From assembly GCA_019187105.1 (NCBI GenBank), contig JABAQM010000001.1:2510734-2574733 (forward strand): a DNA stretch of 64,000 nt, written 5' to 3'. The notes below the pieces were generated by a model. The model was not told the origin of the DNA. It made no database searches and saw only the letters and a list, made by a program, of their open reading frames with translations. Of the stretch, positions 35,311-48,057 are shown piece by piece. The DNA is from Fimbriimonadaceae bacterium (GTDB lineage: Bacteria; Armatimonadota; Fimbriimonadia; Fimbriimonadales; Fimbriimonadaceae). The first letter of the stretch is position 1. Each line of letters starts with the position of its first letter. A program made the position numbers and the translations under genes.

Positions 35311-36459
35311 ATGGGAATCGTCGTTCGGCGGTATCGAGAGGACGACCGGGAGACGTATGCCCAAGTGCATGGAGACGTCTACCGGGACGGCACGCCGCTT
35401 CGCCCCGATGAGGCGATCGAGAAGGAGGGCGACATGCTCGCCTTTGTTGCCGAGTGCGACGGAGAGGTCGTCGGCGGTTACCGGCAGTTGGAAGCAACAT
35501 TTTCGTGGAACGGCCAAGGCCTTTGGGGCGCCGGCATTGCAGGGGTCGCCGTCAGTCCAGCTGCTCGTCGTCAAGGCGTTGGCGCCGCGCTCATGGAAGA
35601 CTCCGTGCGACAGATGAAGGACGAAGGGCGAGTGCTTGCCGCTCTCTATCCTTTTCGATCGAGCTTCTATCAGCGGTTCGGCTATGAGAATTGTGGCTGC
35701 AAGCTGAAGATCACCTGTCCCCAGCACCGGATGCCCAGGGGGGACGAGTCCTTCGATTCCCGCCGGCTTACGATCGCAGACGTGGAGGAGTTGGATGCGT
35801 GTCACAAACGCCATGCCGCCCGATACAACGGGATCTGGCTTCGCACTCACATCCAGTGGGCAGAGGAACTCGCTTCACCGCGCCGAATCTTCGGAATCGG
35901 CAAGCCTGTTAAGGGCTACCTATTTTTCGACAAGGATGCCGGCTTTTGGGTGCCTGGCAACTTGGGCGAGTTGGTTTGGGATTCAGCCGAAGCGTATGAA
36001 GGGCTGCTCGGCTTGATGCGGAGTGTTGCGATCAACAAATCCGCCTTAAGCTGGAACGAGCCCAGCGACTCGCCCTTTGTCGCTTCCTACTTGGAGCAGG
36101 GGGTTGCCGTGGAAGTGGAGCGGCCCGTCATGTACCGGCTGTTGGATGTCGTGGCCGGTTTGTCGCGCCTGCGAACCGACCGGCAGTTATCGTTTTGCTT
36201 CCAGGTCCATGATCACAACCTCCCAGAGAACTCGGGCGAGTGGCGTGTGGAAAGCGGTCCCGATCGCTGCGAGGTCACACGCGGAGGCTCCCCGGACTTC
36301 CGACTCGACATTCGCCGTCTAACTCAGGCGTTCATGGGAGAGCCTGCCCTGGATCAGCTTCTTGGCCAAGGCGCGGTTGAAGTTCTGAATCCTCCTGGAG
36401 CACGATCGGCTGTGGAAGCACTGCCGCACCGACCGGTTTATTGCATCGACCAGTTCTGA
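35311..36459 (+). CDS. Eis-like GNAT N-acetyltransferase
   Basis: The 382-residue protein has the three-part Eis layout. An N-terminal GNAT domain carries the acetyl-CoA loop GVAVSPAARRQGVGAALM near residue 73 (V-x-P-x-x-R-x-x-G-x-G). A second GNAT-like domain lies in the middle (about 160-285). A C-terminal sterol-carrier-like (SCP2) domain of about 100 residues ends at CIDQF; family enzymes use the terminal carboxylate and an aromatic residue in catalysis. Relatives acetylate aminoglycosides or protein lysines, but the natural substrate here is unknown. Confidence 0.88.
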   Translation: MGIVVRRYREDDRETYAQVHGDVYRDGTPLRPDEAIEKEGDMLAFVAECDGEVVGGYRQLEATFSWNGQGLWGAGIAGVAVSPAARRQGVGAALMEDSVRQMKDEGRVLAALYPFRSSFYQRFGYENCGCKLKITCPQHRMPRGDESFDSRRLTIADVEELDACHKRHAARYNGIWLRTHIQWAEELASPRRIFGIGKPVKGYLFFDKDAGFWVPGNLGELVWDSAEAYEGLLGLMRSVAINKSALSWNEPSDSPFVASYLEQGVAVEVERPVMYRLLDVVAGLSRLRTDRQLSFCFQVHDHNLPENSGEWRVESGPDRCEVTRGGSPDFRLDIRRLTQAFMGEPALDQLLGQGAVEVLNPPGARSAVEALPHRPVYCIDQF

Positions 36460-36467
36460 TCCAAGCA

Positions 36468-36626
36468 TTACTCGCTTGCAAGAAAAAGTGCACAGATCGC
36501 CATGAGGGCGGGAAACACGCAGGTTTGAATGCCCCAAGTCTGGTAGCACCACAGGCCGGTTCCGGCTAGTGCCAGGCTGCAGGTGAGGGCAAGAACACGC
36601 CCTCCGATCGCTTCAGTTCTCCTCAT
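36468..36626 (-). CDS. Possible small membrane protein
   Basis: The 52-codon frame on the minus strand encodes a basic N-terminus (MRRTEAIGGR), then two hydrophobic segments (VLALTCSLALAGTGLW and FPALMAICALFLA) and an Asp/Glu-poor end. Its composition is that of a real double-spanning mini-protein, but there is no good ribosome binding site before ATG 36626. It ends 8 bases from the converging acetyltransferase gene. I know no family. Confidence 0.4.
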   Translation of the reverse strand: MRRTEAIGGRVLALTCSLALAGTGLWCYQTWGIQTCVFPALMAICALFLASE

Positions 36627-36675
36627 CACGCATGGAGAACGCCGGGGCTACTTTGCGGTGTCGGCGGAATTTTTC

Positions 36676-36702
36676 CCGACACCTGGAGAAGCTCGCCACG
36701 TT
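36676..36702 (+). promoter_or_regulatory. Predicted ECF promoter of sigma/anti-sigma module A
   Basis: CCGACACCT at 36676-36684 and CGTT at 36699-36702, 14 bases apart, with AATTTTTC just upstream. The same two blocks at the same spacing occur at 38441-38467 before the secreted protein gene. Typical of -35 and -10 elements read by an ECF sigma factor; it predicts autoregulation of the 36750 gene. GTGTCGG at 36658 also forms a 7-bp inverted repeat with CCGACAC. Confidence 0.65.
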
Positions 36703-36749
36703 AAGCTTGTGGACTGGATCCATCCCAAGGGGGGAGGAAGGACGAAACG

Positions 36750-37223
36750 TTGGAAGGAGACTGGACGCATCTCGCACCGCTAAGGCCGCGCCTCATGCGG
36801 CTGGCGACGAGGTTATGCCTGGGAAACCTTGAGGAAGCCGATGACCTTTGTCAAGAAACGCTTGTCCGAACGATACGGTATGTGGACCGGGCAACTCCGC
36901 AAGCTTTGTGGAATATCGCAGCTACCGTTCTTCGCCATGTATCGACAGATCGCTTTCGTCTATCCGCTCGCGTGCAAAACGACGACCAACTGGAGGACAA
37001 GGTGAGCTTTTCCATCGAGGACGAACTGCAGCGCCGCGAATTGCTCAGGAGGATCGATGGACTACCCCTTGATCAGCGAGAGCTTATTACCTATGTTTAT
37101 GCCGAAGGACATTCTCTTGAGGAAGCTTCCGAGCACTTCAAATGCACCCAAGAGGCCATCAAACAGCGTCTTAAGCGGCTGCGACAGAAGCTCCAAACCG
37201 CACTGCAGGAGGTTCCGGCATGA
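36750..37223 (+). CDS. ECF-type sigma factor, module A, TTG start
   Basis: The 157-residue sigma-70 family protein. Region 2 occupies about residues 8-70 (ADDLCQETLVRTIRYVDR as its core pattern) and region 4 about 95-150 (LPLDQRELITYVYAEGHSLEEASEHF, then AIKQRLKRLRQKL as recognition helix). The start is TTG 36750 after GGGAGGAAGGA. The stop overlaps the anti-sigma start as ATGA (37220-37223), so both are made together. The predicted ECF promoter 48 bases upstream recurs before 38505. Confidence 0.9.
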   Translation: MEGDWTHLAPLRPRLMRLATRLCLGNLEEADDLCQETLVRTIRYVDRATPQALWNIAATVLRHVSTDRFRLSARVQNDDQLEDKVSFSIEDELQRRELLRRIDGLPLDQRELITYVYAEGHSLEEASEHFKCTQEAIKQRLKRLRQKLQTALQEVPA

Positions 37224-38428
37224 GGTGTGAAGACTTCCGAAGTGCGCTGAACGACGCGTTTGATTTGGTCGATCCGGAAGTTTTGGGTCCGCTCCAAGAA
37301 CATGCCCGCTCCTGTCCAGCCTGCGAGGCCCTGCTGACGGAGCGCTTGCGGTTCGAACGAACGCTGACGGTGGCCATGCTTCAGCCTGCGAAGCAGCCGA
37401 AGCCCGTTACCGCAGGTCCTCGGGTCTGGTTGAGATACGCTGCCGTTGCGGCAATGACAGTGCTTGGAGTCCTGGCCGGCCATCGATATGGCGTCGCAGA
37501 CCTTGAGAAATCAAAGGACGACGCGATTCAGCGTGTACTGAACAAGGTGGTTCCGCCGGTCTCGGCGGCCGATGTCCCAACGTATTCAAGCCTACTGAGG
37601 CTTCCCGGTCTAGGAAACGATGACTCCGAGTTGTCCGGATGGATGGGTAAGGAAAACGCGCCGCTGCCAAGGGGCCCGATCGATTGGGCGAAACTGGATC
37701 CTCCTTCGAAGGACTTCGTAATGATCGATCCCAAGGTCGGACTCTCTCGCCCGGGATCGATCAAGCTGTTGCAACGCCACTATGGTGGAACCGCGCGACG
37801 AAAGGTCGCCATACCGCTGGGTCCCGGCTCGCAAATCCGGCTGTCCTGCTGGGTCTATTGTCCGTTCGGGGGCTCGATGCAGAACAAGCACCTGAGCATC
37901 GGGATTGCCGGGGGTGATGGTTCGGGGGCAAAGTTCGGGAACAGCGTGAATATATTCAACGCGAATCCCAACTGGCAGCCGTATTGGATTGATACATCCA
38001 TCCCTCAGGCCATAAGCGAATTCGAAATCGCATTCTCGACCGGATCGGGCAACGGCGAATTCAAGGGCTACGACTGGGCGTGCTGGGTCGACGACATTGC
38101 GATCGAGGTTATTGCCTCGTATCCAATAAAAATTGTCACCGTTTCCGACCATCATCTTGACATCGACATTGTTGCACCTGGCGTAAAGTTCGCGGGCCTT
38201 CGGGCGATTAGTTCCCGGCAAGGATTTTCCGACGTGATCGTGAGTCCGCTGCCGGGCAAGGAAAATCGATATCGTATCAAGTCCGTGGCGGTCATTGAGG
38301 AGCTGCGATCACCCAATCCCTTTACAGGGAGAGAATCGCCACTGGGGATTCGCGGTAAAGCAACGATCGGCTCCCAGACGGTCAATTTTTCCGGCGGAGC
38401 CGTACTTGGGCAGCGAGAGGGCCAGTAA
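37220..38428 (+). CDS. Anti-sigma factor with extracytoplasmic sensor domain, module A
   Basis: The 402-residue membrane protein. Residues 1-45 form a ZAS-like zinc anti-sigma domain: EHARSCPACEALL gives H-x3-C-x2-C near residue 28. A single helix (about 73-90, YAAVAAMTVLGVLAGHRYG) follows. The outer 300 residues are beta-rich; LSCWVYCPFGG and WIDTSIPQAISEFEIAFSTGSGNGEFKGYDWACWVDD (pattern) resemble a carbohydrate-binding jelly-roll fold, but I cannot name a family. The layout suggests it holds the sigma factor inactive until the outer domain senses a ligand. Confidence 0.75.
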   Translation: MRCEDFRSALNDAFDLVDPEVLGPLQEHARSCPACEALLTERLRFERTLTVAMLQPAKQPKPVTAGPRVWLRYAAVAAMTVLGVLAGHRYGVADLEKSKDDAIQRVLNKVVPPVSAADVPTYSSLLRLPGLGNDDSELSGWMGKENAPLPRGPIDWAKLDPPSKDFVMIDPKVGLSRPGSIKLLQRHYGGTARRKVAIPLGPGSQIRLSCWVYCPFGGSMQNKHLSIGIAGGDGSGAKFGNSVNIFNANPNWQPYWIDTSIPQAISEFEIAFSTGSGNGEFKGYDWACWVDDIAIEVIASYPIKIVTVSDHHLDIDIVAPGVKFAGLRAISSRQGFSDVIVSPLPGKENRYRIKSVAVIEELRSPNPFTGRESPLGIRGKATIGSQTVNFSGGAVLGQREGQ

Positions 38429-38440
38429 TCGACTAATTTT

Positions 38441-38467
38441 CCGACACCTTCTATCTGCCTCTCCGTT
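38441..38467 (+). promoter_or_regulatory. Predicted ECF promoter of the 38505 gene
   Basis: CCGACACCT at 38441-38449 and CGTT at 38464-38467 with the same 14-base spacing and preceding AATTTT as the element before the sigma gene. A start about 7 bases after CGTT gives a leader near 30 bases that includes AAGGAGGA. Confidence 0.65.
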
Positions 38468-38504
38468 TTCCGAATGTCCCGATTTGAGGACGCAAGGAGG
38501 AGAG

Positions 38505-40160
38505 ATGAAGGGTAATAGAATTCGAAACTCAAAGCGAGGTGCGATAGTTCTCGCGATTACGCTTGCGGTTGTGATGGCGCCTCTGCCATCGGGCGCGGAT
38601 TACCGCATAGGCGGTATCGATGGATTTCAGGGCTGGAGTTGGACGGGCGGAGGACAAGCGGCATTTCGGGGCGCCCTGAAGAACCCGGTTAATTTCGGGC
38701 CAAGCGGCAAAGTTAAGACGGCCGTGGCAGACTTCGAACTTCTGGATGTAAACCCCGCGAGTCTGGCATTGGTCGATTGTTTCGTTGCTCCGGCTGACCT
38801 TGATAGCCGGTACACCCAACAAGACCTCCTCAACATTGAGCAGTTCTTCCTGAACGGCGGCGACCTCTTGCTAATGAACGATGGTGCAAGTTACGACGCG
38901 ATCGGTTCGTTCTTGGGAGTGCCGAGCTCTCAGAATGACTTGACCGATACAACTGGATCCGGAAAGCCACTCTTTTCTGGACCGTTTGGCACCGTGTCCG
39001 CCGTCAAGCACCAAGGTCTCAACGGTCTACTGGCTGCAGACGATGTTTTGGCAAAGGGAGGTGCCGTGATCGGCTCGAATGGAGGAGGTCCAACGATCGC
39101 CCTTTGGCCACGCAATCGCTACGCTCCAGGGGCGGGTGCCCTGATTATTGTGAGCGACGTGGATGCCGTGGCGAGCCCAGGAAATGGCTATCAGGGTGGC
39201 ATGGCCAACTACCAGTCGATGAACCCAAACGCCGTGATGGCGCTGAATGCGGTCGCTACGCTGATCCTAAAGCACCCGTCATCTGGTGCGGTTGGCAATG
39301 CGCAAGCATTAGTCGGCGAACTGACACTTCAGGCGATCAAGCCCGGTAATCGGCATCGTTCCGATCCACGGCGGTTCGACGCCACGATGCTTATTAATTG
39401 TTCCGAGCCGGGGATCGCAGAGATCCTGTTTGAAATCGACGGACTGCCGAAGGGTGAAGTCAAGCGGATGATGCTATCAATAGGTCAAACGGAACTAGAC
39501 GTCCCTCTGCCGGTTGTTCCACAGGGCGCCCATTTCATAACCGTCATCATAAGAGGAAGAAACGCCAAGTCAGACGTATGCATTTCGTATGCCGCCCAAT
39601 ATGATCCCAACACACAGGGGGTGCCGCTAGCTAACCACTCCGGTTGGTTTGCCTGGCAAGGTCTCTGCGTCGGAATGAGCTATACATCTCTCCGCCGATA
39701 CAACGGTCAGGTTTCCGACAGTATTTGGAACGATCCCTTACAGCTAGATTCCTACGTTCAGGTTACGGATGCTTGGGTGAAATTGAACCCACTATTCCTG
39801 GCTAAGGAACTTGAGATGTTCGCAGTAGACCTTGCATCTCGAGAAGGCTATCTGCTGGACCAAATCCGGCAACTCCGTCTGGCTCTGACTGCCAACACGC
39901 CGGGGTGCCTGGCGCTTGGCAACACCGAGGACGTCGGTGCTACTCGTCACTGTGTGGTGGCACACGCCCTTTTCGATTTGGGCGGCGGGAATTACCAGCT
40001 CGGTATCTACGATCCCAACTACGGTCCGATTCCCGGACGCGACGAGAACGTAGTCCAGCGAGTCTACACGTCGTCCGATGCCAATGGCCTTGGTGCCAAT
40101 CTGGATTCCCAGGGAGGATCGGGTTCGTTCGACTTCTTCGGCTTTCTCCCCAACCTTTAG
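38505..40160 (+). CDS. Secreted protein with possible papain-like cysteine peptidase domain
   Basis: The 551-residue exported protein begins with a long signal peptide (residues 1-33, basic then IVLAITLAVVMAPLPSGA). Residues 35-260 resemble no family I know, with NGGDLLLMNDGASYD near 127 (ThuA or DUF4350-like flavour). The C-terminal 170 residues carry WQGLCVGMSY near 387, RHCVVAHALFDLG near 486 and LGIYDPNYG near 505, the Cys, His and Asp/Asn order of predicted papain-fold peptidases. AAGGAGG precedes ATG 38505. Module position makes it the likely target of the 36750 sigma factor. Confidence 0.7.
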   Translation: MKGNRIRNSKRGAIVLAITLAVVMAPLPSGADYRIGGIDGFQGWSWTGGGQAAFRGALKNPVNFGPSGKVKTAVADFELLDVNPASLALVDCFVAPADLDSRYTQQDLLNIEQFFLNGGDLLLMNDGASYDAIGSFLGVPSSQNDLTDTTGSGKPLFSGPFGTVSAVKHQGLNGLLAADDVLAKGGAVIGSNGGGPTIALWPRNRYAPGAGALIIVSDVDAVASPGNGYQGGMANYQSMNPNAVMALNAVATLILKHPSSGAVGNAQALVGELTLQAIKPGNRHRSDPRRFDATMLINCSEPGIAEILFEIDGLPKGEVKRMMLSIGQTELDVPLPVVPQGAHFITVIIRGRNAKSDVCISYAAQYDPNTQGVPLANHSGWFAWQGLCVGMSYTSLRRYNGQVSDSIWNDPLQLDSYVQVTDAWVKLNPLFLAKELEMFAVDLASREGYLLDQIRQLRLALTANTPGCLALGNTEDVGATRHCVVAHALFDLGGGNYQLGIYDPNYGPIPGRDENVVQRVYTSSDANGLGANLDSQGGSGSFDFFGFLPNL

Positions 40161-40165
40161 CTTAA

Positions 40166-40190
40166 CCCCGGCCAATGGCCGGGGCGCCTT
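40166..40190. terminator. Terminator between converging genes
   Basis: CCCCGGCC pairs with GGCCGGGG around a short AAT loop, 5 bases after the stop of the 38505 gene and just before the M24 peptidase end. The T-run is short. Confidence 0.65.
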
Positions 40191-41956: not shown

Positions 41957-44203
41957 TTAGGGTTCCCGTTCCTCCCACTTCTTCAACAACACTTCGTCAA
42001 CCCTTCGAGTTGGAAGCGCAAAGTAGTCGCCGAGATAGCGTTTCAACCGTTCCTTCCCTAACTCTGTCTTTCCTGAATAGTAGAGTGCTTGCGCAATGAG
42101 CCGATCGCGTTCGCCGGAGGCAACCGGCCAGCCGCCGGTAATGCGCTCGGCACAGTGTAGTGCCCTAAAAGCATGTTGCTTCGCCAGTGCTGCAGGAGCC
42201 GCTTCTGCGACGATAAGATGCACGGAAGCAGCGCCAGGGAAGTCGCCTTGATTCGCTAGCTCAGCGGCAAGCTCCGTTGCGCCTCGACTGGCCAACTCCC
42301 ATCGCCGGGTCCGCAAGAGGAGCATGATTCGAGCCTGTTTGCCCAGGGGACCAAGGGTCTGGGCTTCGGAGAGTGTTTGCTGAACCTTCTCCCAGTCACC
42401 CATTTCGGCATAGTGAAGTGCGACGAGTTCCAGGTTTCCGCACGAATCGATCAGCATCTGGCCCTCTCTGGTCTGGCCGCGGTCCATCAATCTCCGCGCG
42501 ATCCACAGACGATGGGGCTGGGACAGCATGATAGCCTCCCCGTCCTTCAAGAGCTTGTCGAGGATCGGGTCCGCGGCCTCCCAGTTACCGAGGATGGGGC
42601 CTGCAATCGAAGCCCACAACACACGAGCAGCGGGAACTTCGGGAAGGGACTTCGCTACCCATGATGCAAGGCCGGCAATATCCTCCCAATCGGCTTCGGA
42701 TCGGGCGACAATTCGAAGTGCGGCGATGATTCGCTCGTACGTGACGTAATCGCGTCGGTCACGCAGTGCCGCCTCGACGGATGCGAACAGTTCTTCATCG
42801 CTGATGGCAGAAGCTTCGAGCTTTCGAATGGCAAGGTGAAGTGCTTGCGCTGGCGTTGGAAACTTAGCTTGCAACAGCTCCAGCCATTTCACGCTTTCTT
42901 TTCGATGGGTTTGGGATCGGAAGCCAGCCTCCGAGCACACCCTCCAAAGCCGTTGCTGCTGCCAGGGATCTCGCGCTTTTGCAGCCTCCGGTGCCGCAAT
43001 CGCGTAGGCAACCCTCCACAACGTGTGGTCGTCGGCTTGATTGGCTCGTTCCAACAGGAGCTCACTGAGTGTCGTTTTCTGAAGCGCAGTCAGCTCGATC
43101 CATTCTTGCGCGTAGACGTCTTGGTCTAGCGCAGTAATCACCGCAGCCTCGAAGTCGCCGCCGGCGATGGTCGCCAGATTTCTTGCCTCCGTCGTGCCGA
43201 GCAGGGAACCGGCAGTCTCCAGGACGCTTCGCGCCTGATTCGCGGAGAACGAATCTCTGAGCCCTGCCGTCCAATAGCGAACCCATTCTGAAGCCCTTGT
43301 CCGATCGGTAGCTGCGATGGCTATGGTGGTTTCGAGGAGGTCCTCCTGAGTCGGATTGGCAATGAACTTCAGAACCAGGGCTTCGGTTGTAGCGCCGAAA
43401 GAGTCAGCTTTCGCATTGCCGATCTCCTCGACAAGCTTGCCACCCCTCAATAGCAGGTAAGCGCCAGGACGAATGGCCGCATTGTCGAGCAGATCAAATT
43501 CACCCTCGGCGTTGAGGGTGCGACCGGCGCCAACGCTCCAGGATTGGGCGCCTTGATAAGCTTGGACTTTCGATTCGCTGACACGAAGGCCGTCACTGGC
43601 ATCTACGCTGTAGCGGGTGCCGAGTGCGACATACTCGCGCCCCTGGCACAGGATTCGAACCTTGTTCCGGCTGTCCTTGGCCTCATCGACGAGGACGTTG
43701 CCAACCAGGAGTTCCAAAGCGTTGCCCGGTCGCAGTCGAAACATCGTAACCACACCGGTCGCAACGACATTCGAGTCACCCAACTTGAGACGGACATCAC
43801 CGGAGGCGAGCACGATCTGGCTGGTGGGCATAGCGGAATTGACCGCGATCTGCTCATTCTCGGCGAATGCTTTGCCGCTCAGCAGAAGCGAATCCGGACT
43901 TGCATGACGGCTTTGACAAATTGCGAAAACGGCGACGCAGGCAGCGACTGCCGGGACAGCGAATTGCCACAACATGCGGCGAGGCACGCGGCTCTGATGG
44001 ATTTGCTCTTGGACTCGTTGTGGAACCGGATCGATGTCGATGCACTCTTTGATATGGCGCGTGACTGGTTCAAGGAGGGCTTCAAGCTTGGCGCCGCAGT
44101 CGGCACAGCTTTGGCAGTGAATCTCGACCGCTGATGCTTGCTGAGTGTCGAGCTTGCCGTCAACATAGGCCAGCAAATCACAATCTCGGCATTGAATTCT
44201 CAT
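41957..44203 (-). CDS. Large anti-sigma-like protein: zinc-finger, FecR-like and helical repeat regions, module B
   Basis: The 748-residue membrane protein. Residues 1-45 hold a cysteine-rich zinc-finger pattern (IQCRDCD, then H-C-x2-C-x2-C), typical of an anti-sigma domain. A helix lies at about 77-95 (LWQFAVPAVAACVAVFAIC). Residues of about 115-230 look FecR-like (LASGDVRLKLGDSN, VTMFRLRPGNALELLVGNV). The last 450 residues are Ala/Leu/Glu-rich helical repeats of the TPR kind. ATG 44203 overlaps the sigma stop as ATGA and follows GGGGAAGC; the longer frame to 44281 lies inside the sigma gene. Such a fusion is far larger than common anti-sigma factors. Confidence 0.75.
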   Translation of the reverse strand: MRIQCRDCDLLAYVDGKLDTQQASAVEIHCQSCADCGAKLEALLEPVTRHIKECIDIDPVPQRVQEQIHQSRVPRRMLWQFAVPAVAACVAVFAICQSRHASPDSLLLSGKAFAENEQIAVNSAMPTSQIVLASGDVRLKLGDSNVVATGVVTMFRLRPGNALELLVGNVLVDEAKDSRNKVRILCQGREYVALGTRYSVDASDGLRVSESKVQAYQGAQSWSVGAGRTLNAEGEFDLLDNAAIRPGAYLLLRGGKLVEEIGNAKADSFGATTEALVLKFIANPTQEDLLETTIAIAATDRTRASEWVRYWTAGLRDSFSANQARSVLETAGSLLGTTEARNLATIAGGDFEAAVITALDQDVYAQEWIELTALQKTTLSELLLERANQADDHTLWRVAYAIAAPEAAKARDPWQQQRLWRVCSEAGFRSQTHRKESVKWLELLQAKFPTPAQALHLAIRKLEASAISDEELFASVEAALRDRRDYVTYERIIAALRIVARSEADWEDIAGLASWVAKSLPEVPAARVLWASIAGPILGNWEAADPILDKLLKDGEAIMLSQPHRLWIARRLMDRGQTREGQMLIDSCGNLELVALHYAEMGDWEKVQQTLSEAQTLGPLGKQARIMLLLRTRRWELASRGATELAAELANQGDFPGAASVHLIVAEAAPAALAKQHAFRALHCAERITGGWPVASGERDRLIAQALYYSGKTELGKERLKRYLGDYFALPTRRVDEVLLKKWEEREP

Positions 44204-44715
44204 CGAGCTTCCCCCAGTATCTGGGTTGCGTCCGGCGGAGGGACTTCGGCCCAGTTGCGCAGCCGCACCAGGGCCCGCCAAACCCAGGATTTGACCGTTC
44301 CGACCGGCACCCGAAGGATGGCGGCAGTCTCTTCATCCGTGAACTCAAGGGCGACACGCAGCCAGACGGCTTCTCGCTGCTGATCGGGCAACGTCGCCAG
44401 CGCCTGGCGGACGAAGTACTTGTCGACGGCGGAGTCGTCGGCGAGAGTTGAGCCTATGGCTTGATCCAGTTCGAATTCTGTGTCCGGCATTTGCACTTCT
44501 CGTCGCTTCTTCTTCTGCTCTTCTGTCCGATTGGCGACATTTCGAGCGATCGTCATGAGCCACGTTCGTTCTGAGCTTTGCCACCTGAACGTGGATAGGC
44601 CTCTGTGGGCCCGGCGGAAGGTCTCGACGGTAGCGTCCTCGGCGTCATCCGGTCCGAGTCGCAGGCGCAAGTAGTTGTAGACAAATTGCGAGTGGTTCTC
44701 GAATTGCCTTTCCAT
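44200..44715 (-). CDS. ECF-type sigma factor, module B
   Basis: The 171-residue sigma-70 family protein: region 2 at about residues 10-75 (DDAEDATVETFRRAHRGLSTFR as core, then ERTWLMTIARNVANR) and region 4 at about 115-160 (LPDQQREAVWLRVALEFTDEETAAIL, then VPVGTVKSWVWRALVRLRNW). I start it at ATG 44715 (MERQFENHSQ), not at the longer frame from 44772, since the predicted -10 element lies at 44756-44761 and transcription would begin near 44749. Coupled to its anti-sigma gene by a 4-base overlap. Confidence 0.9.
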   Translation of the reverse strand: MERQFENHSQFVYNYLRLRLGPDDAEDATVETFRRAHRGLSTFRWQSSERTWLMTIARNVANRTEEQKKKRREVQMPDTEFELDQAIGSTLADDSAVDKYFVRQALATLPDQQREAVWLRVALEFTDEETAAILRVPVGTVKSWVWRALVRLRNWAEVPPPDATQILGEAR

Positions 44716-44755
44716 CAACTGTCCCGCAGGTCTGTTTCGCGACCTTCGTACTATG

Positions 44756-44784
44756 TTGATCCACGCCACCAAAGCGTTGGTTGC
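44756..44784 (-). promoter_or_regulatory. Predicted ECF promoter of module B sigma gene
   Basis: On the minus strand GCAACCA and TGGATCAA are separated by 14 bases. The same layout occurs on the plus strand at 44813-44841; the two 29-base elements match at 22 positions without a gap and point away from each other. The leader to ATG 44715 would be about 34 bases. Confidence 0.65.
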
Positions 44785-44812
44785 GCTGGGCGAAGTTTTT
44801 CAGCGCATGACC

Positions 44813-44841
44813 GCAACCATTGGTTTGTTTACCTGGATCAA
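44813..44841 (+). promoter_or_regulatory. Predicted ECF promoter of the 44885 operon
   Basis: GCAACCA and TGGATCAA with 14 bases between, the divergent partner of the element at 44756-44784. A start about 7 bases downstream gives a leader of about 37 bases that ends in AAGGAG before ATG 44885. Confidence 0.65.
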
Positions 44842-44884
44842 GACCTGCGAGGGCTGGCTGATCAAGGCCAGCGAAGGAGAATAC

Positions 44885-46042
44885 ATGAGGAAATTAGCCC
44901 AGTTCACGCGGTTCCTTTCTTTGGTAATCGTGATGTTCGCGATCGCGGGTGCAAACTGCCCCCCATCGCCTCATTCAGAACGAGAGGAGACCGCCAAAAC
45001 TGCTAGCAATGTCCACGAGCTATCGGCGGGAACCGTTGCGAGGAGAATCGACGACGTAACATACGAATTGCAGGAAGCTATCGCGAGCCTTAAGGTGGGG
45101 GACGTGGTCTTTGCGAAGCAACTAATAGGTGTCCCCGAAGGCTTTGCTATCAAGGTTGAGAAGATTGATTCTGGCCGCAGTAATACTACGATAAGTGGTT
45201 CGAAGGCAAACCTGCTGGATATTTTCTCCGAACTCTATGTAAACAAGAAGAATCTGGTTATTATGCCGCCAGGCGAGATGCGTGGCAGTACACCTGAAGA
45301 GTTTCACATTCCTGTCAGCTGGAGCCTTAGCGATGACGATGGCGATGCTCTAAGGTTTGATGGATCAGTACGCTTCAAGATTCGACTGGACATCTTGATC
45401 GATGCCGTGTTGCTGGACTTGAAAGAGTTTGACTTCAAGACAAAAGTGGACGTCGCATTTGACGGTAACATCACGCACAACTCACCGCTGTCGTTTGATA
45501 TCAACAAGCTCAAAGTATGGGAGAGTCCCCCTCTTGGTATCATCAATTGCGGTCCCTTGGCACTCGTTCCTACCATAAAGTTTAACATAAAGGCGAACGG
45601 AAAGCTTAATGTGGGGTCCGGAATCAACGTCACGGCCACGTTGCGTTCGATCTGTGGCCTGCAATTAAAGGGAGGAAGCTGGCGAGCCTATGGCGATACA
45701 GAACCGACATTCACGGTTGGTAATCCCGTGGTTTACGCGAACGCTAAAGGAGCGCTTACGTTACTGAACCCAGAATTGAGCTTTAAGTGCCTGCCAGTTA
45801 ATGCCGAACTGTATATAGGCGCGGATTTGCCAGAATTCCAGTACGAATTGGAAGCGATCTCCCAGCCCAGATCGGTGCGCTTTGACTTAGATGCGATGTT
45901 CACGGCTGAAGTTGGGATGGATGCAAACATCTTTGGCGAAAAGTTTAAGTGGAAATCGGACCCATTTGTGTTTCGTAGCATGCCCATCATTGATGGCGAG
46001 ATCACGAACGCCGACGGCGAAATAGGAGTGGACATAAAGTGA
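44885..46042 (+). CDS. Secreted protein of unknown function, module B
   Basis: The 385-residue protein has a signal-type N-terminus (MRKLAQFTRFLSLVIVMFAIAGANC). The mature part is beta-rich with repeated hydrophobic/charged alternation (for example GSVRFKIRLDILIDAVLLDLKEF pattern) and several cysteines near the middle; I recognise no domain. AAGGAG lies before ATG 44885; the longer frame starting at 44753 would cross the predicted promoter. Composition is clearly more AT-rich than the surrounding genes. Its stop overlaps the start of the lipoprotein gene as GTGA. Confidence 0.7.
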   Translation: MRKLAQFTRFLSLVIVMFAIAGANCPPSPHSEREETAKTASNVHELSAGTVARRIDDVTYELQEAIASLKVGDVVFAKQLIGVPEGFAIKVEKIDSGRSNTTISGSKANLLDIFSELYVNKKNLVIMPPGEMRGSTPEEFHIPVSWSLSDDDGDALRFDGSVRFKIRLDILIDAVLLDLKEFDFKTKVDVAFDGNITHNSPLSFDINKLKVWESPPLGIINCGPLALVPTIKFNIKANGKLNVGSGINVTATLRSICGLQLKGGSWRAYGDTEPTFTVGNPVVYANAKGALTLLNPELSFKCLPVNAELYIGADLPEFQYELEAISQPRSVRFDLDAMFTAEVGMDANIFGEKFKWKSDPFVFRSMPIIDGEITNADGEIGVDIK

Positions 46043-48057
46043 GTACTCATTCAGCCTGTAAAACAGGAATGTGGCGCGTCCTCAGAGCGGCTGTTGCGAT
46101 CGGAGCCAGTGCATGGATGCTGTCTGGGTGCGGAGGCTCTGGAGGAGCATCTACCCAAACGGAGACGTCGGACATCGTCATCGAGATCCAGTGGCCCGAG
46201 CAGAGTCGTCTCATCCCAGAAGCTTCCCAAAGCATCAGGGTATCGGCTATAGGGAATGGATCTCTTCGATCCGAAACCGTGGTTCCACGGCCCTCCGGGG
46301 GAGAAGGAACAACAACTACGAATCTGACCAACCTGCCGGCGGGTCCGGTGCGAGTAACAGCTACAGCGCATCCCACCGCAGATGGCACCGGTGTAACACA
46401 AGCCGGCGCTGAGACGCTTGTTACCCTTGCCTCAGGTGAGAAGAGGTCCGTGGCCCTGACTCTCGCTTCAACGATTGAAAGGCTTGAGGTTCAGCCGAAG
46501 ACTGTATTGCTTGATCTGGGTGCGTCGAAAACCCTGGTCATGACCGCCCTGAGTCGGGACAACGAGATCGTTCTGTTATCCAGCAATAAGATCCAGTGGT
46601 CGATTGTTGGTCCTGGTATTGTGACCTTGAGCGCAGCCGGAGGTTCAGCTATTGTCACTGCCAAAGAGCCCGGCAGCACCTCGATCCGCGTCCTCGAAAC
46701 CGAATCGGGTGTGTCCGTAACGGCGAATGTCGTTGCGGGTGGCGGAGACATCACCATTGACCCTCCTGGGTGGACGATGGGAAGCGGTAGTACTAAGAGC
46801 TTCAAGGCGACCGCTAAAACGGGCGAGCAAAGCTTCACTTGGGAAGTGGTCGAAGGAAGCGGCACGCTCGTTGATAAGAGCTCGAATCCCGTTAGCTTTC
46901 GATCCGGACCCGTCGAAGGAACGGCCATCCTGAGAGCGACGCAGACCGCCACAGGCAAGACGGGTACAGCCCTGATTCAAGTCGTGAACAAGGCCGTTGT
47001 CATCAATGGGGCCCCGTTTGTTCTGAATCCAGGCGAATCTCGAACCGTTAGCGCCACCGTACTTGGGTCGGGGGACCAGCGCGTGACCTGGACGGGATCG
47101 GGCGTGACGTTTAGTCAGGCGGACGGAAATCCGACCACGATAACGGCAGGAAGCCAGACCGGATCGTATTCGATCCGTGCGACCAGTGTCGCCCATGGAA
47201 TGATCGACGATGCCCCGGTTACCATCACCGGTGGGAATGAAACTGTCGTGGTGATCGATCCTGCCACGGCGTCCATTCGCAAGCTGGAAACATTCAAGTT
47301 CAAAGCAGTCGTAACCGGGCTGAGCGATACGAGTGTCACCTGGCGGATCGAACCCACTGCTGGGGCCTCCATCGATGCTTCCGGTAAATTCATCGCCACA
47401 AATCAAATCGGAGAGTGGCGAGTGATGGCCAAGGCAAAAGACGGGACCGAGTGTGCAGTTCCTTCGAAGATCTACGTTACCGCCGAACCTCATGACCTTA
47501 GTGTTGAATCGTCGCCAGGGGGTGTCGCCATCCAAGTAAGTCGTGCCGACGTGCAGGGTGAGAAAGATGGAACCACTTGGTTCAAGCGAAGATATACCTA
47601 CCTTGAACCGGTAACCTTGACCGCCCCTTATAAAATCTCCAATGGTAAGACTTATTTCGATCGCTGGATTTTAGTTGACGAACAAGGAAGGGTTGAGAAA
47701 ACAAGCACAGCCATAGTCGTTCCTATGGCAGGGAATACTACGGCTACTGCCAACTATGTTCCTGCTTGCGAAGTGACCGTTAAGTGCATAAACACTGATG
47801 GTAACGCAATTAATGATCCGCGCATAACCGTCGACAAGGCCGATCTTGACGGTCTGACTCAATGCACAGGATTTGGCACTTTCTATTACAGGATCTTCAA
47901 TTCGAATCCTCAGACAGTTCGGTTCACGGCTCAGGCCAGTGTCGGTGGACGAGCCTTTAAAGAATGGAAAGTTGACGATCAATTTAAAGGTACTGGGCTC
48001 AACCTAGATCTTAAAATCGATAGCAGTGCCAAGTTCGTTACGGCAGTCTACCAATGA
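46039..48057 (+). CDS. Lipoprotein with bacterial Ig-like repeats, module B
   Basis: The 672-residue protein with GTG start coupled to the upstream gene. A lipobox LSGCGG near residue 30 gives a lipidated cysteine. The body shows several BIG2-like repeats, such as PKTVLLDLGASKTL, PPGWTMGSGSTKSFKATAKTG, GAPFVLNPGESRTVSATV and PATASIRKLETFKFKAVVTG (each the start of a repeat). The end looks like a divergent bacterial-repeat domain (FDRWILVDEQGRVEKTS, ATANYVP). Probably an adhesin or scaffold at the surface, made with the 44885 protein under module B control. Confidence 0.75.
   Translation: MSTHSACKTGMWRVLRAAVAIGASAWMLSGCGGSGGASTQTETSDIVIEIQWPEQSRLIPEASQSIRVSAIGNGSLRSETVVPRPSGGEGTTTTNLTNLPAGPVRVTATAHPTADGTGVTQAGAETLVTLASGEKRSVALTLASTIERLEVQPKTVLLDLGASKTLVMTALSRDNEIVLLSSNKIQWSIVGPGIVTLSAAGGSAIVTAKEPGSTSIRVLETESGVSVTANVVAGGGDITIDPPGWTMGSGSTKSFKATAKTGEQSFTWEVVEGSGTLVDKSSNPVSFRSGPVEGTAILRATQTATGKTGTALIQVVNKAVVINGAPFVLNPGESRTVSATVLGSGDQRVTWTGSGVTFSQADGNPTTITAGSQTGSYSIRATSVAHGMIDDAPVTITGGNETVVVIDPATASIRKLETFKFKAVVTGLSDTSVTWRIEPTAGASIDASGKFIATNQIGEWRVMAKAKDGTECAVPSKIYVTAEPHDLSVESSPGGVAIQVSRADVQGEKDGTTWFKRRYTYLEPVTLTAPYKISNGKTYFDRWILVDEQGRVEKTSTAIVVPMAGNTTATANYVPACEVTVKCINTDGNAINDPRITVDKADLDGLTQCTGFGTFYYRIFNSNPQTVRFTAQASVGGRAFKEWKVDDQFKGTGLNLDLKIDSSAKFVTAVYQ

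What the first reader, a model, noticed from the sequence alone, without database searches (positions are those of the whole stretch)
36668..40160. ECF module A with matching promoters at the sigma gene and one secreted target
CCGACACCT-N14-CGTT occurs before both the sigma gene (36676-36702) and the 38505 gene (38441-38467), with the same spacing and the same AATTTT upstream. This is what an autoregulated ECF sigma factor and its target should look like. The anti-sigma protein has a large outer domain that looks sugar-binding, and the target has a possible cysteine peptidase domain, so a cell may sense a surface ligand and secrete one effector.
Basis: partly seen in the sequence, partly recalled or inferred. 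Interest (0 to 1): 0.75.

Follow-up and report, generated by a model that had tools for sequence, protein, structure and literature searches.

The report
Self-activating sigma factor switch with targets
A bacterium of the phylum Armatimonadota carries a small gene switch (a sigma factor, its membrane-bound inhibitor with a sugar-binding-like outer domain, and a secreted protein) whose matching start signals are conserved in related bacteria, so the predicted self-activating circuit is very probably real, though of an ordinary kind.

Summary
In detail: CCGACACCT-N14-CGTT occurs exactly twice in the window, before the ECF sigma gene and before the 38505 gene (chance 0.03). The AATTTT is offset by 2 bp between the sites and is not conserved. 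All three other genomes that encode this sigma subfamily carry CCGACACCT-N14-CGTA upstream of the sigma gene, while the 16 next-closest ECF genes lack it. In the four carriers 8 of 10 exact hits have the 14-base spacer, against 9 of 81 elsewhere in the family. So the module most likely has a two-way promoter, the 38441 target promoter and at least one distant candidate. The anti-sigma is a zinc-type, single-helix membrane protein; its outer domain has a carbohydrate-binding-module fold (two relatives hit CBM_4_9; the model matches CBM16/CBM4). Sugar binding is unproven. The cysteine-peptidase idea for the target could not be confirmed; that protein is an orphan. This is a well-supported new member of an ordinary kind of regulatory module, with an unusual -35 element and sensor.

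The parts
36676..36702 (+). sigma-gene promoter CCGACACCT-N14-CGTT (-35 and -10)
   Evidence: orthologous sigma genes have CCGACACCT-N14-CGTA
36638..36664 (-). divergent promoter-like site CCGACACCG-N14-CGTT, back-to-back with the sigma promoter
36657..36683 (.). inverted repeat GGTGTCGG-N11-CCGACACC formed by the two facing -35 elements
   Evidence: sequence; site found
36468..36626 (-). small ORF, 52 aa, hydrophobic (one clear membrane segment, residues 32-50, and a weaker one); ATG 12 nt after the last base of the divergent -10. Coding status not proven
36750..37223 (+). ECF sigma factor, 157 aa (region 2 and region 4 only), start TTG after GGGAGGAAGG
   Evidence: Sigma70_r2, Sigma70_r4_2; TIGR02937 5e-19
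37220..38428 (+). anti-sigma factor, 402 aa: N-terminal C3...H28-x3-C32-x2-C35 zinc-type domain, one membrane helix about 69-87, outer beta-sandwich (about 120-300) of carbohydrate-binding-module fold, C-terminal domain
   Evidence: overlaps the sigma stop codon
38441..38467 (+). target promoter CCGACACCT-N14-CGTT
38505..40160 (+). target: secreted protein, 551 aa, signal peptide (hydrophobic 13-31), no confirmed domain; orphan in the phylum
40166..40184 (+). GC-rich hairpin CCCCGGCC-AAT-GGCCGGGG after the target gene; likely transcript end

Best explanation
This is an autoregulated ECF sigma factor module. The sigma factor recognises CCGACACCT-N14-CGTW. In the resting cell it is held by the anti-sigma protein, whose zinc-type N-terminal domain faces the cytoplasm and whose carbohydrate-binding-module-like domain faces outward. 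When the outer domain meets its ligand, the anti-sigma is inactivated (most likely by regulated proteolysis, as for other membrane anti-sigmas). The freed sigma then transcribes its own operon from 36676, probably a small membrane protein divergently from 36664, and the secreted 38505 protein from 38441, plus one or two distant genes. Shown: the motif, its spacing, position and conservation at orthologous sigma genes; domain architecture. Inferred: that this sigma binds the motif, that transcription starts there, the topology, the ligand class, and the release step. The confidence given is for the sigma-promoter circuit; for glycan sensing it is about 0.6.
For: Motif at both genes. Sigma orthologues in G018, G094 and G095 (E 5e-95 to 2e-99, then a gap to 5e-20) all have CCGACACCT-N14-CGTA upstream of the sigma gene; the 16 next-closest ECF genes have no site with fewer than 3 mismatches. 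In carrier genomes 8 of 10 hits have spacer 14 against 9 of 81 in other family genomes (Fisher 1e-5, or 0.004 with the sigma promoters left out). Carrier sites lie 37-135 nt before start codons; the other-genome N14 sites fall mainly inside long reading frames. The -10 is CGTT at all sites of this genome and CGTA at all sites of the other genus, as expected if each set is read by its own sigma. The -35-reading segment EAxKQRLKRxR is nearly identical among the four sigmas. Anti-sigma motif H-x3-C-x2-C invariant in six family members; zf-HC2 in 3 and CBM_4_9 in 2 of six; weak profile hits to RsiW and DdvA; model residues 120-300 match CBM16/CBM4 (Foldseek E about 2e-5; Z about 10).
Against: No transcript data. 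The -35 lacks the AAC common in ECF promoters (PMC8103513). Genome-wide the bare string is near chance. The model of the anti-sigma is of modest confidence (mean pLDDT 48.5), and the window protein itself has no Pfam hit. The target gene is absent from the other carriers, so its promoter cannot be tested by conservation. G020 has one such site without the sigma orthologue.
Confidence: 0.85

Rival explanations
1. The motif is the operator of a DNA-binding regulator (the sigma promoter contains a GGTGTCGG-N11-CCGACACC inverted repeat) and not a sigma -35 element.
For: The inverted repeat is real.
Against: The target site and the G018/G094, L001, L053 and L058 sites have one half only, always with CGTW exactly 14 bases on, and the repeat is explained by two facing -35/-10 pairs.
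Confidence: 0.06
2. The sigma gene is autoregulated, but 38505 is transcribed mainly by read-through from the sigma operon, and its own motif is minor or non-functional.
For: Only 76 bp separate the genes on one strand, no terminator-like site was found between them, and a hairpin follows 38505.
Against: A perfect 13-base match with exact spacing 37 nt before the start codon is very unlikely by chance; the spacers differ, so it is not a copied stretch.
Confidence: 0.1
3. The sigma is not its own activator: the shared motif is read by another sigma of the cell.
For: G020 has one intergenic CCGACACCT-N14-CGTATAAT site although it lacks this sigma.
Against: Enrichment and placement follow the presence of this sigma; module B in the same window lacks the motif.
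Confidence: 0.06
4. The outer domain of the anti-sigma is a protein- or envelope-sensing beta-sandwich, not a sugar sensor (an alternative for the input step only).
For: The same fold occurs in proteins that do not bind sugars (one search also lists meprin and viral capsid domains); binding residues were not tested.
Against: Two family members match Pfam CBM_4_9 at up to 4e-6, and CBM16, CBM4 and CBM61 are among the best fold matches.
Confidence: 0.35

Closest known systems
Canonical autoregulated ECF sigma / class I zinc-type membrane anti-sigma pairs, e.g. SigW/RsiW
   Same: Two-domain sigma, overlapping anti-sigma gene with H-x3-C-x2-C domain and one membrane helix, matching bipartite promoter at sigma and target genes
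   Different: -35 is CCGACACCT instead of an AAC type; outer domain is a large CBM-like sandwich; very small regulon
SigI/RsgI biomass-sensing systems of Clostridium thermocellum (PMC6056542, PMC12203970)
   Same: Works like it: membrane anti-sigma with an outer carbohydrate-binding module, self-regulated operon, -10 of CG type with a specific -35
   Different: Sigma is an ECF, not SigI; N-terminal part is a zinc-type domain; no RsgI domain was recognised
ECF52 sigma factors of Actinobacteria (PMC5826349)
   Same: Zinc finger, membrane segment and carbohydrate-binding module coupled to an ECF sigma
   Different: Parts are fused in one protein in ECF52; here sigma and anti-sigma are separate genes, in another phylum
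ECF41 (PMC3426412)
   Same: Non-AAC -35 (TGTCACA), -10 CGTC, about 16-base spacing, single adjacent target
   Different: ECF41 has a C-terminal regulatory extension; -35 sequence differs

Membership tests
ECF (group IV) sigma factor | Only regions 2 and 4, short linker | tested here: met
   Pfam: region 2 at 11-72, region 4 at 95-148 of 157 aa
ECF (group IV) sigma factor | Co-encoded anti-sigma and positive autoregulation (typical, not strictly defining) | tested here: inconclusive
   Co-encoded: met, gene overlap 37220-37223. Promoter motif conserved at the sigma gene in four genomes, but autoregulation itself is inferred, not measured
ECF (group IV) sigma factor | AAC -35 and CGT -10 (typical, not defining) | tested here: inconclusive
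   -10 CGTT/CGTA fits; -35 is CCGACACCT without AAC
Class I anti-sigma, zinc type | N-terminal helical domain with H-x3-C-x2-C | tested here: met
   Invariant C3, H28, C32, C35 in six family members; helices predicted; zf-HC2 in 3 of 6
Class I anti-sigma, membrane-bound | One membrane helix between inner and outer domains | tested here: met
   Hydropathy peak 69-87, mean 1.63 (borderline), and predicted helix 68-87
Carbohydrate-binding module (CBM_4_9-like) | Sequence match to the family | tested here: inconclusive
   Two of six family members match (best 4e-6); the window protein itself does not
Carbohydrate-binding module (CBM_4_9-like) | Jelly-roll fold | tested here: met
   Model residues about 120-300, Z about 10 to CBM16 and CBM4; model confidence modest
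Carbohydrate-binding module (CBM_4_9-like) | Sugar binding | not testable with these tools
   No binding data can be had from sequence
SigI/RsgI | SigI-type sigma and RsgI N-terminal domain | tested here: not met
   Pfam gives ECF domains for the sigma, and zf-HC2 but no RsgI domain for the anti-sigma family
ECF52 | Sigma, zinc finger, membrane segment and CBM in one chain | tested here: not met
   Two separate overlapping genes in all four genomes
Papain-like cysteine peptidase (target protein) | Family match or fold with Cys-His-Asp site | tested here: inconclusive
   No Pfam, NCBIfam or PDB match; structure prediction failed (pLDDT 31)
One of the 157 ECF groups (2021 classification) | Match to a group model | not tested
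   The group models are not among the libraries at hand

The most novel reading that the evidence does not exclude
A previously undescribed ECF sigma subfamily of Armatimonadota, reading CCGACACCT-N14-CGTW through a two-way promoter, senses glycans through a separately encoded zinc-type anti-sigma with a CBM domain, and keeps its own promoter while replacing nearly all its targets between genera.
Probability: 0.35. Interest if true: 0.55.

Novelty: new member of a known kind. Interest (0 to 1): 0.42.

Why it matters
It gives a predicted, testable sigma-promoter pair with a defined -35, -10 and spacing in a phylum for which I found no paper on ECF regulation in the held library, and a sensor whose likely ligand class (glycans) is suggested by its fold. 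The two genera with CGTT and CGTA -10 boxes are a natural experiment on how sigma region 2 and its promoters change together. The small and changing target set shows how an ECF switch can keep its own loop while swapping outputs.

Tried and rejected
Exact-motif count as the sole test: near chance genome-wide, so it was replaced by orthologue and spacing tests. AATTTT as part of the promoter: rejected, offset differs and it is not conserved. One-mismatch and relaxed-core scans: most extra hits lie in genes; kept only the divergent site and one weak candidate, atGACACCT-N14-CGTT before a prepilin-like gene (G000:C1:933590, minus; L173). Anti-sigma in genome contigs by single sequence: none; with the alignment two, both already found. 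Structure of the target: failed. Target C-terminal domain in 291 Armatimonadota genomes: no homologue. sigma70-type promoters or Rfam RNAs in the two upstream regions: none.

Full report
Observation. CCGACACCT-N14-CGTT is present at 36676-36702 and 38441-38467, and nowhere else in the window; 0.03 hits are expected. In the whole genome (3.3 Mb) there are three exact hits with spacers of 12-16, and the reversed control gives two. So the bare string proves little genome-wide; what matters is that two of three hits stand just before a sigma gene and the gene after its anti-sigma. The two spacers agree at only 2 of 14 bases, so this is not a duplicated stretch. AATTTT is near both, but 2 bp off register, and is absent from the other carrier sites.

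Genes. The sigma (36750-37223) has Sigma70 regions 2 and 4 only and matches the ECF superfamily model at 5e-19. The anti-sigma (37220-38428) overlaps it by four bases. Six members in one family of Armatimonadota share C3, H28, C32 and C35, i.e. H-x3-C-x2-C, plus an outer domain with conserved GG, NK and DWAxWxDD. Three of six match zf-HC2 and two match CBM_4_9. A model from a shallow alignment places a beta-sandwich at about 180-300, and its best fold matches include CBM16, CBM61 and CBM4 (Foldseek E about 2e-5; Z about 10 over residues 120-300). Phage tail fibres, meprins and viral capsid proteins match about as well, so the fold alone does not prove sugar binding. The target (38505-40160) has a signal peptide, no family match, no full-length homologue in 85 genomes of the family, and its C-terminal part has none in 291 genomes of the phylum.

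Orthologues. A profile of the sigma finds four members at 1e-69 to 1e-99, then a gap to 5e-20. The three others (G018, which by length and position is the record CP054189.1; G094; G095; one genus, same family) each have the sigma followed by the CBM-type anti-sigma, and CCGACACCT-N14-CGTA upstream of the sigma gene. The G018 and G094 sites are near-identical copies and count once. The 16 next-closest ECF genes have no such site. G017 and G020 have the CBM-type anti-sigma but next to a different sigma, and no site there. So the motif follows this sigma, not the anti-sigma. The sigma segment that should read the -35 is nearly the same in all four (EAxKQRLKRxR).

Spacing and position. Across 85 genomes of the family, hits with spacers 12, 13, 14, 15 and 16 number 21, 21, 9, 13 and 17 in the 81 non-carriers, but 8 of 10 are N14 in the four carriers (Fisher 1e-5; 5e-5 with the G018/G094 copy merged; 0.004 with the sigma promoters left out). 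The carrier N14 sites lie in gaps before start codons: besides the sigma genes and 38505, they precede a 291-aa Ser/Thr/Lys-rich protein (L001), a PQQ-type beta-propeller protein with a hydrophobic N terminus (L053) and a 360-aa protein (L058). The N14 sites in non-carriers are mostly inside long frames. All sites in this genome read CGTT; all in the other genus read CGTA. My gap calls rest on reading frames, not on annotation, and opposite-strand frames overlap some of the sites.

Divergent site. Allowing one mismatch adds CCGACACCG-N14-CGTT at 36664-36638 on the minus strand. Its -35 faces away from that of the sigma promoter, giving the inverted repeat GGTGTCGG-N11-CCGACACC (36657-36683). 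Twelve bases after its -10 starts a 52-codon frame for a hydrophobic protein (36626-36468). In G095 the sigma promoter also has an abutting inverted GACACC-N15-CGT about 40 bases before a TTG start, preceded by GGAGGA, of a secreted WD40-type protein (domains). This suggests a two-way promoter in two genera. It is a weaker claim than the main one, and the small frame may not be a gene.

Mechanism. Resting: sigma bound to the inner zinc-type domain. Signal: outer CBM-like domain meets a ligand. Release: probably regulated proteolysis; I did not search for the proteases. Output: sigma operon, 38505, perhaps the small membrane protein and the L001 gene. The hairpin at 40166-40184 would end transcription after 38505. 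Because no terminator-like site lies between anti-sigma and target, read-through from the sigma promoter may add to 38505 expression.

Comparison. ECF hallmarks are from PMC8103513: AAC/CGT boxes, two domains, co-transcribed anti-sigma, autoregulation; only the domain layout is defining now. A non-AAC -35 with an adjacent single target is known for ECF41 (PMC3426412). Anti-sigmas with outer CBMs are known for SigI/RsgI (PMC6056542, PMC12203970), and an ECF-zinc finger-membrane-CBM fusion for ECF52 (PMC5826349). H-x3-C-x2-C as the zinc signature is from PMC7406223. The module works like these but is a member of neither RsgI nor ECF52. I found no paper on ECF systems of Armatimonadetes in the held library, which is not proof that none exists. 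I could not test it against the 157-group ECF classification.

Noticed in passing
L001 1685-2959 (minus), own genome C1 near 1,313,800-1,315,100: A sigma-70 type factor with regions 2, 3 and 4 fused to a GGDEF (diguanylate cyclase) domain (Pfam 9e-21), just upstream of the third motif site. A sigma factor directly joined to a c-di-GMP-type domain looks unusual.
   Followed up: partly
window 35311-36459 and L048 6972-8129: An Eis-like GNAT acetyltransferase gene (Acetyltransf_9 + SCP2_2) lies next to the module here, and a 37% identical one lies about 1.4 kb from the CBM-type anti-sigma in G020.
   Followed up: partly
window 41957-44772 (minus): A second ECF sigma and anti-sigma pair (zf-HC2 and FecR-like traces) divergent from secreted proteins at 44753-48057; it lacks the CCGACACCT motif.
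   Followed up: no
L051 1293-1319 (G020): CCGACACCT-N14-CGTATAAT, 42 nt before a secreted ORF, in a genome without this sigma; may be chance or another ECF.
   Followed up: no
L173 (own genome C1:933590-933614, minus): atGACACCT-N14-CGTT 19 nt before a prepilin-like gene with a good ribosome-binding site; possible weak extra target.
   Followed up: no
L048 4380-5543 and L049 6011-7267: The same CBM-type anti-sigma outer domain is paired with unrelated ECF sigmas in G020 and G017, suggesting partner exchange.
   Followed up: partly
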